DNA of 64,000 bases from Ignavibacteria bacterium (GTDB lineage Bacteria; Bacteroidota; Ignavibacteria; Ch128b), in contig JABLYA010000001.1 in assembly GCA_013177855.1 (NCBI GenBank), positions 1,777,573-1,841,572 on the forward strand. The letters are read 5' to 3'. Under the pieces are notes generated by a model. The model saw only the letters and a list, made by a program, of their open reading frames with translations. It ran no database searches and had not been told where the DNA came from. The translations under genes were made by a program, and so were the position numbers. Shown here piece by piece: positions 12,409-20,657 of the stretch. Within the stretch, counting starts at the first letter, position 1. Every line of letters begins with the position of its first letter.

Positions 12409-14187
12409 ATGTGCAATAGATTTAAATTTTGTTTTACTTTTATTCTTTTATTATTAACTACTAATATTATTAGTGGTCAGCTGATACAAAGTAAATTAGA
12501 AGATAAATCCCATTTTTTAGTTACTTCCCATCCCAGAATTGAATGCTATAAGGTTAACGATGATTTAGTCGTTCTAAAAGATAAAATAACTGGATTAAAC
12601 AAGTACTTAAGAGTAAATTATCCGCAGGATACACTTTATCCTAATTTAGAAATTTATATATCTACTGTGGATACAATGCATTATGTAAATATGTTAAGGC
12701 CTTTTAAAAAGTTAATAAATATAATGCCAGGTTATTTATTAGGTGAAAAAATTATAAATGGACCAATTGGAGATATTAATAATAATGGTAGAATAGAATA
12801 TTATTGTTTTTCTTTTTCGCCTATAATTTTAGAATACAATCCAATTGACTCTAACTTTAATTTAATTTATAAATATCAAAAGTATTATAATTATATATTC
12901 TTTACCCCAAGGAACTTTTTAGACTATGATAATGATGGACTAATTGAAACGTTTGTATTAGGATATGATTCTAAAAATGAAAAACATGCATTATTACAAT
13001 TAAAGCAAACTAATAGATTCGATTTACCCACAAGAGTTAATTTAATCTATTTTGACTCATTATCAAGTTTTCATTCGCTTTTACCTTTTGATTTAGACGG
13101 GGATTCATTGTATGAATTAATCCATTTTTCTTTTGATGAACGTTTGATGAAAATCGCTAAGTATAGTAAAACATTAAATAATTATTATACAGTTTATAGG
13201 AGTGATAGTTTATATTTTTTTTATGTGGAGAACTATTTAGTTGATGATTTTGATAAAGATGGTAAAATTAATATTATTACTTCAGATTTTGATGGTTGGA
13301 TCTATGATCATGAAATGACAGACAATTTTAATTTTAAATTTTCAAAATTTAAAATAAACGATATCAATCTTTTTGATAAATGTATAACAAAAGATTTGGA
13401 TAATAATGGTTTTGATGAAATCTGGATAGCTTCTTCTTCTTATTTCATATATCCTTTTAGAACGAGATTATATCAATTTGAAGCAAATGGTAATGATAGT
13501 TATGTACTTAAATATATAATTCAAATAAATGGAGATTATAAACTTTTTTCTCGTTCAATGATGGCTTATGATATTGATAAGGATGGTAAAGAAGAGATAT
13601 TGTTTATAACAGACCATATATTTTACATTTTTAAGTATTTAGAGAATGGTAATTTCGATTTATATTATTTTAAAATAATAGATGAATGGCGTCAAAATTT
13701 TGTATTTATAGAATTTTTCCTTGGGGATTTAGAAAATGATGGTATCCCAGAAATCTTTTTTGAAACCCAATACTCATATTTTATTACATATAAAAATGAT
13801 TTTTTAATAAGAAATGGAGAAGAAATAAATTATAGTCCCGATACTGATGCAATAACCCAGATTTATAAGATTAATTTTTTATCTACTGATGTATTATTAG
13901 AACCGGTTAAAGAATTTACAATTTATCAAAATTATCCTAATCCATTTAATTCAAATACATTCATTTCATTTGAGCTACCGGAAGAGATATATCTTGAAGT
14001 AAAAGTTTATAATTTGATAGGGGAAGAAGTCAGGACTTTAGTTTCATCAATATATAAAGCTGGGCAATATAAAATACAATGGGATGGGAAAGATAACCAG
14101 AAGAGGGATTTACCTTCGGGAATTTATCTTATAAAATTCAATTCAAATAAATTCAGTAAAACAATTAAATCAGTTTTATTAAGGTAA
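12409..14187 (+). CDS. T9SS-exported protein with seven Ca-binding VCBS/FG-GAP-like repeats
   Basis: A signal peptide ends at IISG followed by Gln. Seven DxDxDG-like loops can be read: DINNNG, DYDNDG, DLDGDS, DFDKDG, DLDNNG, DIDKDG and DLENDG. Each is followed by an acidic/hydrophobic strand, which fits a seven-bladed integrin-type propeller with Ca-binding loops. The C-terminus is a T9SS type A sorting domain (YQNYPNPFN, then a GQYKIQWDG-like strand and a final Lys/Arg-rich end). It should be carried across the outer membrane and anchored or released. GAGAGG lies ahead of the ATG. The gene looks even more AT-rich than its neighbours. The ligand is unknown. Confidence 0.8.
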   Translation: MCNRFKFCFTFILLLLTTNIISGQLIQSKLEDKSHFLVTSHPRIECYKVNDDLVVLKDKITGLNKYLRVNYPQDTLYPNLEIYISTVDTMHYVNMLRPFKKLINIMPGYLLGEKIINGPIGDINNNGRIEYYCFSFSPIILEYNPIDSNFNLIYKYQKYYNYIFFTPRNFLDYDNDGLIETFVLGYDSKNEKHALLQLKQTNRFDLPTRVNLIYFDSLSSFHSLLPFDLDGDSLYELIHFSFDERLMKIAKYSKTLNNYYTVYRSDSLYFFYVENYLVDDFDKDGKINIITSDFDGWIYDHEMTDNFNFKFSKFKINDINLFDKCITKDLDNNGFDEIWIASSSYFIYPFRTRLYQFEANGNDSYVLKYIIQINGDYKLFSRSMMAYDIDKDGKEEILFITDHIFYIFKYLENGNFDLYYFKIIDEWRQNFVFIEFFLGDLENDGIPEIFFETQYSYFITYKNDFLIRNGEEINYSPDTDAITQIYKINFLSTDVLLEPVKEFTIYQNYPNPFNSNTFISFELPEEIYLEVKVYNLIGEEVRTLVSSIYKAGQYKIQWDGKDNQKRDLPSGIYLIKFNSNKFSKTIKSVLLR

Positions 14188-14202
14188 ATTAAGGAGGAAA
14201 AA

Positions 14203-14592
14203 ATGAGAACATTAATTTCTATCGTAATTTTATTAATTTCATTTAATCAGTTGATTGGTCAAAACTGGAATAGTCCAATACAAACCTTTGGAATTGATCA
14301 GAATGCGAAAATATCATCATTTGTTGATGGAAGAGGAATACATATTTCTTATATATCAGCTGGTAATTTGAAATACGCATTGTTAAAATCCAATGGACAA
14401 ATTGTAAAGGTTAATAAAACAGTTTTTTCTAATAATTGTAGTAATTCAGTAATAGTCACTAATGGAGAAACTATATTTGTTTTATTTAAATACGGTAATA
14501 CTATAAAATTAGCAAAATCAATAAACCTTGGGGATAATTGGTCTATTGATGATGTAATTACAGATGTTAATTATACAATGGGTGATTATTAG
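14203..14592 (+). pseudogene. N-terminal fragment of a frameshifted T9SS-exported protein
   Basis: It begins 15 bases after the preceding stop with AAGGAGGAAAAA ahead of the ATG, and has a signal peptide ending LIG followed by Gln. The fragment stops after 129 residues at GDY. The next frame opens at once and continues the protein to a sorting domain. A single missing base between 14586 and 14592 explains the break: the TGA of the second frame at 14583-14585 bars an earlier crossing. Alone it would be exported but could not be sorted by T9SS. Confidence 0.75.
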
Positions 14593-15932
14593 ATGCAGTT
14601 TTAGTTAAATCTATTCAAGATGAGAAGATTTATTTCGTATTAGATGATATCACTAATTATAATTCTTATTTATATTCATATTCTATTATAGGTAAAACTA
14701 AAAGCTTTCTTGATAAAGTAAATTTGGATAATGAACCTGGACGATTTCCTTCAATAGCGAGGTCAACTAATAGACTTCATATTTTATATTTTGCTTCAAC
14801 CAATGCAATCGGTGATGTAAAAGTGCGAGACTTTGATCTTAATGCAAATAGTTTTTATCCTCCCACTCAAGTGCCTAGAATTAATTCAATAATTAATCCA
14901 CCGGTATGGGGTGGCAGACATTATATAACTACTAACAATAATAGGGTACATATAGTTTATACCTCGTATGTTTCAACCTGGAGTAATGTTTACGAATATG
15001 TAGGTCATTTTTCAAGAGGAGTAAATGATACTATCTGGACAGAACATTATTTTAATTGTGAATCTAAAAAAGAGTTGCCTTCTTTATTAACTTCTACTAA
15101 TGATAACACGATACATTTGATATATTACGACAAGACAAATGGATACTTGCATAAAAAATTTAACGGACAGAGTTGGTTCACAGTAGGTTATGTTTATTAT
15201 AGTGCCAATGCTACTTTACGTCCAAATTCAAATGATTTGTATTTGCTTTCAGTAAGTCAGAACACAATTGGAAATCCAGATCCATATAGTGTTTATTTAA
15301 GGCAATATGACGCAGCGCCACTTGCACCAACAAATTTAAGCGTAAGTGCAAATAGTGGTATACCAAAACTAAGATGGACATTGAATAATGAACCAGATGT
15401 AAGAGTAAATAACAATGCTTATAGCATTGAGCGAAGATTGGATTTAATGGGTAATGGTCAATGGAATAATTGGCAATTAATTGGTACTGTGAATGGGAAG
15501 AATAATGAATTTATAGATACTTCAATTAACAGCGCAGGTTCTGGTCCAAGCTATGCACAATACAGGGTTAGAGCTCAAGATATTGGAGGAAATTACTCAG
15601 GTTATTCATCACCAGTTACCATTAATTATGGTAATGGATTGGAGAAGAGAGTTATAAAAAATTCTAATTTTCAATTAATTGGTAATTATCCGAATCCTTT
15701 TAATCCTGAAACAAAAATTGTATTTACAACACCTGAACCTGGCAGTGTTGAGTTAATATTGTATAATTTTATTGGAGAAATGGTTTATAAAACTTCGAAT
15801 CTCAGTTTGGATGCAGGTGAACATTATTATACCATAAATGCGGATGAATTAGGATTAAAATCAGGAATTTATTTTTATAATGTAAAATTTAAAGGTTCTT
15901 CTAAATCTGGTAAAATGATTTTAATTAAATGA
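14586..15932 (+). pseudogene. C-terminal fragment of the same protein: FN3-like domain and T9SS sorting domain
   Basis: The frame continues the broken upstream ORF, with DAVLVKSIQDEKIYFVLDD in the first residues. A TTG inside it is the first formal start, but no ribosome-binding site or signal peptide is found there. A fibronectin-III-like domain follows (from APTNLSV to YSGYSSPVTI), then a type A sorting domain starting NYPNPFNPETKI and ending KMILIK. Joined with the first fragment the product would be about 576 residues. Whether the break is real or a sequencing error cannot be decided here. Confidence 0.75.
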
Positions 15933-15948
15933 ATTTATCTTATGTCGT

Positions 15949-15970
15949 GGGGCTGCTAATAAGTAGCCCC
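15949..15970 (+). terminator. Hairpin between two T9SS genes
   Basis: GGGGCTGCT and AGTAGCCCC form a nine-pair stem (one G-T) with an AATA loop, 17 bases after the stop. The tail is only weakly T-rich, so it may be a terminator or an mRNA-processing/stabilising hairpin. Confidence 0.5.
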
Positions 15971-16001
15971 CAAATTATTGTTTATTAAAGTGGTAGTAGC
16001 C

Positions 16002-18146
16002 ATGAAAAATATCATTAAAATAATTCTTTTTTATATCTTTCTATACCAAATTTTTCTTTATTCTCAAACAAGTAATTGGTTTGTTTTGAATAAATTTAAT
16101 ACGGGCATTCAACCGTTTTCCTATGCTCCTTCGGTTACAACTGATAAGATTATATATTTTTTTACTGGAAACGGACAATTAATTAAATATGATGGTTTAA
16201 TTAAAAATATAAAGTTTAATATTCCGGGAATTCCAAACAATTCCATTAGAAAATTAATTATAGATAGATTTAACAATATGTGGTTTTTAACTTATGGTTT
16301 TGGTCTGATTAAATTTGATGGTTCTAATTTTATAACTTTCAATACATCAAACTCAGGTTTGACAAATAATGATATTAATGATATTGATTTTGACTTACAG
16401 GGTAATCTATGGATAGCTACAAGTGATGGCGGACTTTTTAAATTTGATGGAATTAATTGGGTTCGTTATTGGACAGGGAATTCAAATATACCAGATAATC
16501 AATTGACAACAGTGCATATTGATAAACTGAACAGAAAATGGGTTGGAACAAAATTACCAGCAATGGTTGCGTATTTTAACGATACATTATGGGTTACATT
16601 CAATCGTACAAACTCTGGTATAAATGGTCAAATTTTTAAAATAGTTTCTGACGATTCAAATGATGTATGGATTGCAACCGGATTGGGTATTTCAAAGTTT
16701 GATGGTATTCGGTTTCAGCATTTTTTCTACTCTCGAGGAGATGAATATAGAGATATTGCCATTGATATTCATAAAAGAATCTGGTTTGGTGGTGATAATG
16801 TAGTTATTTATGAAAACGGTAATTGGACTAATTTAAGTGATTTGTTTCCCTATTCTTTAGTTAATAAATCAATTATAAATAATTTAATTGTAAATGGTGA
16901 TTCAGTTTTTTTGGTTACAAAAAATTTAGGACTTTTCAAAGTTTATGACAGTACCTTTGTCCAATTAAGCCAATTTAATACAGGTATTAAAAATAATTAT
17001 ATAAAGACAATTTCAATAGATAAAAACAATGACTACTGGATAGGGACATATGGGAGTGGGCTTATAAAACTTAGAGCGGATAAAGATACACTTGAATGGG
17101 ATGGATTTTTAGATGATGGGATAATTTATAGTATAAGTTTTGACAGTAGCGGTTCAATTTGGGTTGGCAGTCTTTTTTCAGGTTTATTTAAATATGATGG
17201 GAACAGCTGGATTAGACTAACAACTTCAAATTCGCCTTTACCCTCAAATAATATTGTAACAATAAAAACAGATCCATATAATGTAAAATGGATAGGTACA
17301 TCAAGGGGATTGGTAAAGGTAGAAGGTGATAACTGGACGGTATACACAACGCAGAATTCGGGATTGCCCGATAATACAATTGGGTCGATAGTGATAGATA
17401 ATCAAAATAACAAATGGTTGGGGACAAACAATGGTTTGGTAAAGTTTGATGGATTAAACTGGGTAGTATATAATACATCTAATTCACCTTTACCTGAGGA
17501 TGTTATTTTGAGTTTAGAAATTGATAGTCTGGGTAATTTATGGATAGGTACATGGAATGGTGGTTTGGTAAAGTTTGATGGAATAAATTGGACGATATTT
17601 AACAAGAATAATTCACCATTGCCGAGTAACCGGATACGAGCCTTAAAGGTGGATCATAATGGAGTTTTGTGGATAGGAACGGAGGTTAATGGAATAGTAA
17701 GCTTTGATGGGAACAACTGGCGAATTTTTAATCGATCTAATTCTGGACTTCCTGATGATTTTATTTATGATATAGAAGTTGACAGGTTTAATCAGAAGAT
17801 AATTGCAACAGGTGGTGGCGTTGCGTTTTTCAAAGAGGATGGGATAGTATTGGAAAATGGAGATGAAGAGGATACAAATCCGGATACTTATGTATTATAT
17901 CAAAATTATCCAAATCCATTTAATCCGATAACTAAGATAAGATATAAAATAGGAGAAGATGGAATAGTAACACTTAAGGTTTATAATCTGCTGGGTGAAG
18001 AGGTAGAGACAATAGTTAATGAATTTATGCGAGCCGGGGAATACGAAGTTGAATTCAATGCGAGTTCATTACCATCTGGGGTATATTTTTATGCACTTCA
18101 GGCTGGGAAATTTAAATCCATCAAAAAGATGGTTCTCTTGAAGTGA
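16002..18146 (+). CDS. T9SS-exported two-component-regulator-type propeller protein
   Basis: The ATG chosen lies 24 bases inside a longer frame that would start at TTG; it gives a clean signal peptide ending LYS followed by Gln-Thr. The body is made of Reg_prop-type blades with repeated KFDGxNW and NxxWxGT motifs, enough for one or two propellers. In full sensor kinases these form the periplasmic sensor, but here no transmembrane or kinase region follows. Instead there is a type A sorting domain (YQNYPNPFNPITKI to KKMVLLK). It is therefore a cell-surface protein, function unknown. Blades in the second half are very alike at DNA level, so recombination between them is possible. Confidence 0.85.
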   Translation: MKNIIKIILFYIFLYQIFLYSQTSNWFVLNKFNTGIQPFSYAPSVTTDKIIYFFTGNGQLIKYDGLIKNIKFNIPGIPNNSIRKLIIDRFNNMWFLTYGFGLIKFDGSNFITFNTSNSGLTNNDINDIDFDLQGNLWIATSDGGLFKFDGINWVRYWTGNSNIPDNQLTTVHIDKLNRKWVGTKLPAMVAYFNDTLWVTFNRTNSGINGQIFKIVSDDSNDVWIATGLGISKFDGIRFQHFFYSRGDEYRDIAIDIHKRIWFGGDNVVIYENGNWTNLSDLFPYSLVNKSIINNLIVNGDSVFLVTKNLGLFKVYDSTFVQLSQFNTGIKNNYIKTISIDKNNDYWIGTYGSGLIKLRADKDTLEWDGFLDDGIIYSISFDSSGSIWVGSLFSGLFKYDGNSWIRLTTSNSPLPSNNIVTIKTDPYNVKWIGTSRGLVKVEGDNWTVYTTQNSGLPDNTIGSIVIDNQNNKWLGTNNGLVKFDGLNWVVYNTSNSPLPEDVILSLEIDSLGNLWIGTWNGGLVKFDGINWTIFNKNNSPLPSNRIRALKVDHNGVLWIGTEVNGIVSFDGNNWRIFNRSNSGLPDDFIYDIEVDRFNQKIIATGGGVAFFKEDGIVLENGDEEDTNPDTYVLYQNYPNPFNPITKIRYKIGEDGIVTLKVYNLLGEEVETIVNEFMRAGEYEVEFNASSLPSGVYFYALQAGKFKSIKKMVLLK

Positions 18147-18228: not shown

Positions 18229-18627
18229 AAACTAATAGTCATAAATGATCCCGAATAAGTTATAAATTTTTTCAAAATGGTAATATACTATTCCGAAGAG
18301 GTTATATATCTTTCCGAAGAACTAATCTATGAATCCGAAAATTGTATATTCCTTTACGAATAAGTCATATTTGTTTTCGAAACGTTAAAATGTGATTCCG
18401 AAAGGGTTATATATGGATCCGAAGAGGTTGTATTTCCATCCGAAAGGGTTATATGTGATTCCAAGTAAGTAATAAATTTCTCCGATTTAGTAATAAACAT
18501 TTCAGCAAAAGTAATCTTTAATTACTGAGAATTTATAAATTATTCCTGAGTGATAATAAATGTTTTCTAAGTTAATCTAAATTAATACGAAGAAACAGTG
18601 AATTATCCCGCTAAAACAAAAAAGCCA
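18229..18627. repeat. Degenerate tandem array with strict 21-bp period
   Basis: About 18 to 19 units follow each other without any indel. Unit starts fall at 18250, 18271, 18292, 18313, 18334, 18355, 18376, 18397, 18418, 18439, 18460, 18481, 18502, 18523, 18544, 18565, 18586 and 18607. The best units read TCCGAA, four variable bases, then TTATAT or TAATAA-like sequence. Outer units are diverged but in phase. One frame translates into S-E-x-V-I-Y-x heptads but carries several stops, so it is not an intact gene. The array lies just before a terminator. Confidence 0.85.
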
Positions 18628-18647
18628 GCCGCAGGGGCTGGCTTTTT
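18618..18647 (-). terminator. Bidirectional-looking intrinsic terminator
   Basis: GCCAGCC and GGCTGGC form a seven-pair GC-rich stem with a GCAGG loop, flanked by A6 on the left and T5 on the right. It can end transcription of the minus-strand OPT gene, 31 bases away, and also plus-strand reads coming through the 21-bp array. Confidence 0.85.
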
Positions 18648-18677: not shown

Positions 18678-20657
18678 TTAATCTTCTTCTTTTGCTCGCA
18701 TTGTTTCCCACATCATATAAAGAATGACTAAGGTCAGCATTACCATTCCCAGGATTTCAGCTGATTTTGTTTCAGCCCATTCGGTATTGAACCAGTTAAA
18801 TCCTGCAAATCTTAGCAATGCACTGAAAACTCCGAATAAAGCTCCGCCGGCAATAAATCCACTTGCTACAAGAGTTCCTCTTGAAAAACGAGCATTGTTT
18901 AGTTTTTCGTTATTAGTTCTTGTTTTAGCCCAGTGAGCAATTAATCCACCGATTAACAGCGGAGTATTTAAATCAAGAGGAATGTACATTCCTAACGCGA
19001 AAGCCAGCGGCGAAATTTTAAGCCATGTTACAAGTAGAGCTATAACAGCACCAATGAAATAAAGCATCCATGGTGCGGGAATATTTGACATTAAAGGTTT
19101 AATCACCGCAGCCATTGCATTCGCCTGAGGAGCAACGAGTGCACCTTCACCAACAAATCCATAAGTTTGATTCAAAATTATTATTACAATTCCAACAGTT
19201 GCAGCGGAAACAATTGTACCTAAAAATTTATACATCTCCTGATTCTTTGGAGTGGTTCCAATCCAGTAGCCAATTTTCAAATCTGTGATGAAACCACCTG
19301 CCATCGAAAGAGCAGTACAAACAACTCCGCCAATTATCATTGCACTCAACATTCCTGATGCACCGCTAAGCCCAACCTGAACCAGAATGAAAGATGAGAG
19401 AATTAATGTCATTAAAGTCATCCCGCTTACAGGATTAGTCCCGACAATTGCAATAGCAGTTGCAGCAACAGTCGTGAAGAGAAATGAGATTATTAAGACA
19501 ATTAGAAGTCCAACGATTGCATGGTAAAGATTGAAAGTTACTCCAGCATAAAAGAAAACAAAAATCATAAGTGCAGTAAGTATGATGAACAAAACATTGA
19601 AAGACATTTTAATATCAAGTTGAGTTCGCGGAACTTTCTGATCATCACCAGATTTTTTATGAAAGATTTCGTTATACGCAAGAGTTACAGCATTTTTAAT
19701 GATGTTTGAAGAACGAATTACTCCAATAATTCCAGCCATCGCAATTCCACCAATTCCAATGTGACGAACATAATTTCTAAAAATTTCTTCAGCGCTCATT
19801 TCTGATATCAACTTTGTAGCGGTTGCACCAAGTGGTGTTGTGAGATATTGACCTATTTCGTTAAATAGTGGAATCAAAACAAACCACGAAAGAAATGATC
19901 CAGCGCAAATAATTATTGCATATTTCAAACCTACTATATAGCCAAGTCCAAGAACCATCGTTAGTGAATTGACTTTGAAAACTAATTTGTATTTATCAGC
20001 TAAGACTTCACCCAGATGAAAAATTCTTGTGGATATAACTTCTGACCACCATCCAAAGGTTGAGATAATAAAATCAAATAAGCCTCCAACTAATCCGCTG
20101 ACAGCAAGCACAGAAGCCTGTTTGCCGCCTTTTTCACCTGCAACTAAAATTTCGGTTGTAGCAGTTGCTTCGGGGAATGGAAACTTGCCGTGCATTTCTT
20201 TGACAAAATATTTTCTGAATGGAATTAAAAATAAAATTCCTAAAAATCCGCCAAAAAGTGAGGCAAGAAAAATTTGATAGAAATTAACTGGAAGGTTTAA
20301 GATATAAAGTGCTGGTATTGTAAAAATTGCACCAGCCACAATTACTCCTGAACTTGCCCCAATTGACTGAATAATTACATTTTGGCCTAATGCATTTTTT
20401 TTCTTTGCAAGTGATGAAATTCCAACTGCAAGAATTGAGATTGGAATTGCAGCTTCCATCACCTGACCAATTTTCAAACCTGAGTATGCGGCAGCGGCAG
20501 AGAATAATATTGCCATCAATAAGCCCCAGATAACGGAATATGGAGTGACTTCGGGATAAATTTTATCCGGATGAAGAATTGGAATGTATTCTTCTCCCTC
20601 TTTCAATTCCCGATATGCATTTTCTGGAAGTCCATTTGAAGTTTTCGGTATTTCCAT
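18678..20657 (-). CDS. OPT family (oligopeptide transporter) membrane protein
   Basis: The 659-residue polytopic protein has at least a dozen hydrophobic segments and the OPT-type N-terminus (TPYSVIWGLLMAILFSAAAAYSGLKIGQ, here read in part), with many Gly/Ala-rich helices. The bacterial members transport peptides or metal chelates by proton symport; the substrate here is not readable. CAGGAGAG precedes the ATG, and the gene starts 19 bases after radA, so it is the last gene of an mlaF-radA-OPT run ending at the terminator. Confidence 0.88.
   Translation of the reverse strand: MEIPKTSNGLPENAYRELKEGEEYIPILHPDKIYPEVTPYSVIWGLLMAILFSAAAAYSGLKIGQVMEAAIPISILAVGISSLAKKKNALGQNVIIQSIGASSGVIVAGAIFTIPALYILNLPVNFYQIFLASLFGGFLGILFLIPFRKYFVKEMHGKFPFPEATATTEILVAGEKGGKQASVLAVSGLVGGLFDFIISTFGWWSEVISTRIFHLGEVLADKYKLVFKVNSLTMVLGLGYIVGLKYAIIICAGSFLSWFVLIPLFNEIGQYLTTPLGATATKLISEMSAEEIFRNYVRHIGIGGIAMAGIIGVIRSSNIIKNAVTLAYNEIFHKKSGDDQKVPRTQLDIKMSFNVLFIILTALMIFVFFYAGVTFNLYHAIVGLLIVLIISFLFTTVAATAIAIVGTNPVSGMTLMTLILSSFILVQVGLSGASGMLSAMIIGGVVCTALSMAGGFITDLKIGYWIGTTPKNQEMYKFLGTIVSAATVGIVIIILNQTYGFVGEGALVAPQANAMAAVIKPLMSNIPAPWMLYFIGAVIALLVTWLKISPLAFALGMYIPLDLNTPLLIGGLIAHWAKTRTNNEKLNNARFSRGTLVASGFIAGGALFGVFSALLRFAGFNWFNTEWAETKSAEILGMVMLTLVILYMMWETMRAKEED

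What the first reader, a model, noticed from the sequence alone, without database searches (positions are those of the whole stretch)
18229..18627. Indel-free array of about 18 degenerate 21-bp units
Unit starts recur every 21 bases from 18250 to 18607 with no slippage, although the sequence of the units has drifted widely. The best conserved parts are TCCGAA and, half a unit later, a TTATAT-like box. 21 bp is two turns of B-DNA, so equivalent positions face the same side of the helix. Drift without indels suggests that spacing, not sequence, has been kept. Possible roles are a phased protein-binding array, a nucleoid or recombination site, or the remains of a heptad-repeat coding region (one frame reads S-E-x-V-I-Y-x but has several stops). 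It lies right before a terminator.
Basis: partly seen in the sequence, partly recalled or inferred. Interest (0 to 1): 0.75.

Follow-up and report, generated by a model that had tools for sequence, protein, structure and literature searches.

The report
Phased 21-bp intergenic repeat array
Between two genes of a bacterium lies a row of 17 worn 21-letter repeats, one of two families of such rows scattered through its chromosome, and because the 21-letter step has survived while the letters changed they are probably sites where a protein binds along one face of the DNA, although a function has not been shown.

Summary
Window 18250-18606 is 17 units of exactly 21 bp with no internal indel. Identity at lag 21 is 0.59; the best of 1000 shuffles over all lags 8-60 is 0.41. 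It is not a one-off. The same unit (TCCGAANNGGTNATATNTNNT) forms four intergenic arrays of about 13-20 units on this chromosome, with no shared flanks, no solo copies, and stops in every frame. A second, unrelated unit forms four more 21-bp arrays. Other genomes of the class carry 21-bp arrays with other sequences. In a scan of raw sequence, lag 21 (with multiples) is prominent in four of six sampled genomes, and one is estimated to hold nearly 300. In the window family, conservation is position-specific, peaks twice per unit (once per helical turn), and 331 departures came with no indel. Codon tests, RNA folding and a curvature model speak against a coding relic, an RNA and a bent-DNA element. 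In phage contigs TTCCGAA repeats at 21-22 bp sit inside replication-initiator genes, where iterons are expected. Best reading: an iteron-like, two-turn-phased protein-binding array (0.45). Main rival: a neutral or selfish minisatellite with a 21-bp bias (0.40). No binding protein is identified, and the array is absent in the four relatives that could be checked.

The parts
18250..18606 (+). Array of 17 degenerate 21-bp units, family A, consensus TCCGAANNGGTNATATNTNNT; the last two units are weak
18292..18459 (+). Best conserved part of the array (8 units)
   Evidence: unit scores
18147..18249 (.). A+T-rich spacer between the end of the upstream gene and the array; no homology to the flanks of the three sister arrays
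15978..18146 (+). Upstream gene (722 aa ORF): propeller-like repeats and a C-terminal YPNPFNP-type sorting domain (type IX secretion style); the array begins 104 bp after its stop
   Evidence: domain names from sequence motifs, not from an HMM search
18619..18647 (-). Intrinsic terminator of the convergent transporter gene, not part of the array
   Evidence: hairpins at the same place after the orthologous genes in G001, G002, G003 and G005
18678..20657 (-). Convergent gene, probable oligopeptide-type membrane transporter (659 aa); orthologues 84-93% identical in five relatives
   Evidence: name inferred, not HMM-tested

Best explanation
The array is an iteron-like, two-turn-phased protein-binding array. 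Each 21-bp unit (2 x 10.5 bp) shows the same face of the helix two short conserved blocks, (T)TCCGAA and GGTNATAT, about one turn apart. A sequence-specific protein would bind several units cooperatively side by side, so the register is under selection while the other positions drift and unit number changes by whole units through recombination. The family occurs at four intergenic places in this chromosome and would act as a multi-site platform: a titration or handcuffing site for a replication-initiator-like protein, or a nucleoid or segregation anchor. Shown: exact register, dispersal, absence of coding, RNA and curvature signals, position-specific conservation. Inferred: the protein, its cooperative binding, and the role.
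For: Four arrays share one unit with an unbroken 21-bp register. 70 units carry 331 departures from consensus and no internal indel. Departures are very uneven across positions (chi2 with 20 d.f. 54-96 per array) and the same positions are free in all four arrays (Spearman 0.51-0.76). The conservation profile peaks twice per unit (permutation p 0.008 for the window array, 0.01 pooled). A second unrelated unit in the same genome forms four more 21-bp arrays with no phase error between the matches found. In a scan of raw sequence lag 21 and multiples are prominent in four of six genomes of the class, against one lag-21 and one lag-22 array in 385 kb of other classes. Arrays that differ otherwise share a CGGAA/TTCCG core more than composition predicts (7 of 26 against 0.9). 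In IMG/VR three TTCCGAA at 21-bp spacing occur in 27 contigs against 2 at spacing 20. Seven of those arrays lie inside genes matching Lin1244_N and PHROG replication-initiation families, an arrangement known for the iterons of lambda gene O (PMC3349717).
Against: No binding protein is known and gene context is not shared among the four arrays. The matching site is empty in G001, G002, G003 and G005. G097 would hold nearly 300 arrays of many sequences, too many for a dedicated site. In G097 the register breaks at times (a 9-bp deletion in L109, 1-bp shifts in L191). Viral spacings 22 and 24 are also common (15 contigs each). The departures are not all independent, because units are copied within arrays and the arrays share an origin. 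Samples from G108 and G002 came partly from contigs already known to hold arrays, so their densities are biased upward.
Confidence: 0.45

Rival explanations
1. Neutral or selfish minisatellite. Replication slippage, unequal crossing-over and gene conversion make and spread the arrays; 21 bp reflects a bias of the copying machinery in this lineage, and the shared consensus reflects recent common origin of the copies.
For: Whole-unit changes: two G097 copies differ by exactly one 21-bp unit. Four-unit blocks are duplicated inside L030. Many unrelated unit sequences occur in one genome. Presence is patchy: none in 193 kb of congeneric G001. No context or positional conservation.
Against: Predicts roughly uniform drift and ordinary small indels in aged arrays such as the window's (69% identity to consensus); instead conservation is position-specific with two peaks per unit and no indel. 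Does not explain the shared CGGAA core or why 21 in several families.
Confidence: 0.4
2. Remains of a heptad-repeat (7-codon) coding region.
For: 21 bp is 7 codons; one frame reads S-E-x-V-I-Y-x; one reverse frame in L028 is open for 143 aa.
Against: In all four family-A arrays substitutions are synonymous, nonsynonymous or stop at about the chance rate, with no consistent excess of synonymous change in any frame. All are intergenic with stops.
Confidence: 0.04
3. A BrickBuilt-like MITE carrying a minisatellite.
For: Dispersed, intergenic, imperfect tandem repeats of similar length, like the 23-bp repeats of Porphyromonas gingivalis BrickBuilt (PMC4596501).
Against: The four arrays share no leader, tail or terminal inverted repeat within 300 bp on either side.
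Confidence: 0.05
4. A bent-DNA or RNA element.
For: 21-bp spacing adds bends in phase; several arrays in other genomes are strongly curved in the wedge model.
Against: Family A is not more curved than shuffles and L029 is straighter. Folding energies are ordinary (z -2.1 to +1.0) with no common structure. No Rfam match reaches its gathering score.
Confidence: 0.06

Closest known systems
Replication-origin iterons (phage lambda ori in gene O; plasmid Rep iterons; Vibrio chromosome II RctB sites)
   Same: Tandem direct repeats of about two helical turns, degenerate, with a conserved core; here TTCCGAA repeats at 21-22 bp are found inside phage replication-initiator genes
   Different: These arrays are intergenic, longer (13-20 units), present at several chromosomal sites, and next to no recognisable initiator gene
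BrickBuilt minisatellite/MITE of Porphyromonas gingivalis (PMC4596501)
   Same: Dispersed intergenic arrays of an imperfect 23-bp repeat, found 19 times in one genome, repeat number from 1 to 22.8
   Different: 23 bp rather than 21; leader and tail with inverted ends, which are absent here; indels of 0-6% inside the repeats; single-unit versions exist, none here
BldC-type cooperative binding to direct repeats (PMC5859096)
   Same: A known way for a small protein to coat direct repeats head-to-tail on one face of DNA with variable repeat number
   Different: [quoted passage not shown] promoter sites, not long intergenic arrays
ParR/TubR-type plasmid centromere arrays (from general knowledge)
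   Same: Tandem repeats at one- or two-turn spacing bound by a protein filament
   Different: Usually beside the par genes on a plasmid; no par gene was recognised beside these arrays

Membership tests
Replication iterons | Tandem direct repeats of about 17-22 bp with a conserved core | tested here: met
Replication iterons | Adjacent or encompassing replication-initiator gene | tested here: not met
   No initiator-like ORF among the neighbours of the four arrays as read from the ORF lists; not HMM-searched
Replication iterons | Specific binding by an initiator protein | not testable with these tools
   needs footprinting
BrickBuilt-like MITE | Shared leader/tail with terminal inverted repeats | tested here: not met
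BrickBuilt-like MITE | Dispersed intergenic copies of one imperfect tandem unit | tested here: met
CRISPR array | Identical repeats separated by unique spacers | tested here: not met
   Units abut without spacers and are degenerate
Heptad-repeat coding sequence | Open frame with excess synonymous change | tested here: not met
Intrinsically curved DNA element | Predicted curvature above shuffled sequence | tested here: not met
   wedge parameters entered from memory; unmet for family A only
Structured RNA | Stable conserved fold | tested here: not met
Variable-number minisatellite | Unit number varies between strains | not testable with these tools
   one genome per species; unit number varies between loci

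The most novel reading that the evidence does not exclude
In this bacterial class the conserved thing is the 21-bp register itself. Chromosomes carry sets of two-turn-phased arrays whose sequence turns over quickly because they act as decoy iterons: they soak up or handcuff the replication initiators of phages or plasmids whose origins use TTCCGAA-type repeats at 21-22 bp. The evidence does not exclude this, but no phage or plasmid with a matching unit was found. A precedent for iterons acting in trans is the lambda inhibition phenotype, where plasmid-borne ori iterons, together with oop transcription, block phage replication (PMC3349717).
Probability: 0.1. Interest if true: 0.85.

Novelty: new variant of a known kind. 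Interest (0 to 1): 0.55.

Why it matters
Tandem arrays of exactly two helical turns, with different sequences in different species but the same period, would be a clear case where DNA geometry rather than sequence is conserved. If a protein is found it would define a lineage-wide iteron-like or nucleoid-organising system, possibly tied to defence against phage or plasmid replication. If none is found, the genomes offer a natural experiment on why minisatellites prefer 21 bp.

Tried and rejected
Coding relic: substitution-type test in six frames. RNA element: folding and Rfam. Curved DNA: wedge-model curvature. MITE: flank comparison. Regulon of single sites: no unit outside the four arrays at up to 1 mismatch. 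Mobile replicon: no blastn match in phage or plasmid records, none in IMG/VR for two-unit patterns of either family and one chance match for a relaxed pattern. Positional conservation: absent in relatives (G004 could not be read because its contig ends). Two searches used a pattern off by one base, so the only genome-contig scan was wasted; its ten hits show no array of this kind. Weak model hits in G010, G069 and G097: G010 is chance, the other two are 21-bp arrays of another sequence.

Full report
WHAT IS THERE. Window 18250-18606 holds 17 consecutive 21-bp units with no slippage. Identity at lag 21 is 0.59; in 1000 dinucleotide-preserving shuffles the best value at any lag from 8 to 60 was 0.41. 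The consensus of the family is TCCGAANNGGTNATATNTNNT. The array begins 104 bp after a 722-aa gene (15978-18146, +) and ends 12 bp before an intrinsic terminator (18619-18647) that faces it. That terminator belongs to the convergent transporter gene (18678-20657, -): in G001, G002 and G003 a GC-rich hairpin with a T run follows the orthologous gene, and a similar hairpin follows it in G005. None of these four has the array there; G004 could not be read because its contig ends. The array is therefore an addition in this species or was lost in the others.

A FAMILY IN THIS GENOME. The whole genome (3.66 Mb, 10 contigs) has four arrays of this unit: C1:43 kb (about 20 units), 710 kb (13), 1796 kb (the window, 17) and 2254 kb (about 20, minus strand). 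All keep the 21-bp register throughout. There are no solo units elsewhere at up to one mismatch. The flanks of the four arrays share nothing and the neighbouring genes differ: downstream of sorting-domain genes (window and 710 kb), between divergent genes (43 kb), after a type III restriction-like gene (2254 kb). A second unit, unrelated in sequence (TGAACTAATTCAGGTCAAAGG), forms another four arrays in the same genome, again with every match in one 21-bp phase per array. It is absent from 30 relatives.

A HABIT OF THE CLASS. The family-A unit is absent as an array from 60 relatives, two of them in the same genus. Arrays of other sequences with the same period are present in several: G002 (same genus), G070, G097, G108, G126, G146, G184, and G012 as a 42-bp repeat. 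To avoid choosing by motif, I scanned raw sequence for tandem similarity at all lags 8-120. G097 (477 kb) gave 29 arrays at 21, 42 or 63 bp against 10 at other lags; G108 gave 6 at 21 or 84 against 6; the own genome and G002 also gave 21-bp arrays; G001 (193 kb) and G123 (135 kb) gave none; shuffled sequence gave no array at all in the six samples where that control was run. The G108 and G002 samples and part of the G097 sample came from contigs already known to hold arrays, so the densities there are upper figures; the first 161 kb of G097 was not chosen that way and still gave nine arrays at 21 or 42 bp. Extrapolation gives nearly 300 arrays in G097, which is an estimate. Other classes of the phylum gave one lag-21 and one lag-22 array in 385 kb. 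Of 26 arrays the 5-mer most in excess of composition is CGGAA/TTCCG (7 against 0.9 expected); some of those contigs had been selected through TTCNGAA, so this excess is partly biased.

SIGNS OF CONSTRAINT. In family A the departures from consensus are very unequal among the 21 positions in each array (chi2 with 20 d.f. 54-96), the same positions are free in all four arrays (Spearman 0.51-0.76), and the conservation profile has two peaks per unit, one per helical turn (p 0.008 in the window array, 0.01 pooled; not significant in L028 and L029 taken alone). The four arrays hold 331 departures and no internal indel. Caveat: units are copied within arrays and the arrays share an origin, so the departures are not independent and part of the cross-array correlation may be inherited. 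In G097 the register is mostly but not always kept (L109, L191). Two G097 copies of one array differ by exactly one 21-bp unit besides substitutions. G097 also has arrays that turn into their reverse complement half way, staying within 1-2 bp of the grid (L189/L192, L191).

WHAT IT IS NOT. Not coding: synonymous, nonsynonymous and stop changes occur at about the chance rate, with no consistent excess in any frame. Not a structured RNA: folding z-scores run from -2.1 to +1.0 over both strands of four arrays, and no Rfam match reaches its threshold. Not a bent-DNA element by a wedge model whose parameters I entered from memory: family A is no more curved than its shuffles, although arrays of G002, G108 and G146 and some of G097 are. 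Not a CRISPR array. Not a MITE of the BrickBuilt kind, since leader and tail are missing (PMC4596501).

A LEAD FROM PHAGES. In IMG/VR, three TTCCGAA at 21-bp spacing occur in 27 contigs, at 20-bp in 2, at 22-bp in 15 and at 24-bp in 15. Several of these are plainly coding repeats. Nine genes that contain 21- or 22-bp arrays were tested: seven match Pfam Lin1244_N and PHROG replication-initiation families, and the other two match PHROG replication-initiation families. Iterons inside the initiator gene are how phage lambda marks its origin (PMC3349717). This is an analogy of architecture and core motif, not evidence that the chromosomal arrays are origins: no initiator was recognised beside them and no phage or plasmid with a matching unit was found.

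VERDICT. The most likely mechanism is cooperative binding of a sequence-specific protein to two-turn-phased units, as at iterons or at BldC sites (PMC5859096), with the array as a multi-site platform (0.45). A neutral or selfish minisatellite with a lineage-specific 21-bp bias explains almost as much (0.40). The lineage was not named by any tool; sorting-domain motifs, low G+C and genome size suggest Ignavibacteria, which is inference.

Noticed in passing
L122:15081-15332 (C1:about 175 kb); also C1:1309055-1309274, C1:2325732-2325930, C2:201634-201792: Second family of dispersed 21-bp arrays in the same genome (TGAACTAATTCAGGTCAAAGG), with palindromic TGAACTAATTCA and CCTNNNAGG parts; the one read in full has hairpin-forming CCTATACAGG/CCTATATAGG sequences on its left.
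   Followed up: partly
G097 samples L106-L118 and L177-L196: A genome of the same class with 29 arrays of period 21, 42 or 63 in 477 kb and many different units; an extreme case that deserves its own study.
   Followed up: partly
L189:125-614, L192:11459-11926, L191:1041-1458: 21-bp arrays that switch to their reverse complement half way while staying within 1-2 bp of the 21-bp grid, giving long inverted repeats.
   Followed up: partly
L257, L260, L263, L268, L269, L275, L276 (IMG/VR contigs): Phage replication-initiator genes (Lin1244_N, PHROG 2562) with 3-5 TTCCGAA repeats at 21-bp spacing in the linker, probable origin iterons that also read as S-E heptads.
   Followed up: partly
window 12409-18146: Run of plus-strand ORFs with C-terminal sorting domains (YPNPFN type) upstream of the array; sister arrays at 43 kb and 710 kb also lie beside genes of this kind.
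   Followed up: no
L129:16932-17243 and L131:12580-14285: Other tandem repeats in the own genome, periods 66 and 108 bp, not examined.
   Followed up: no
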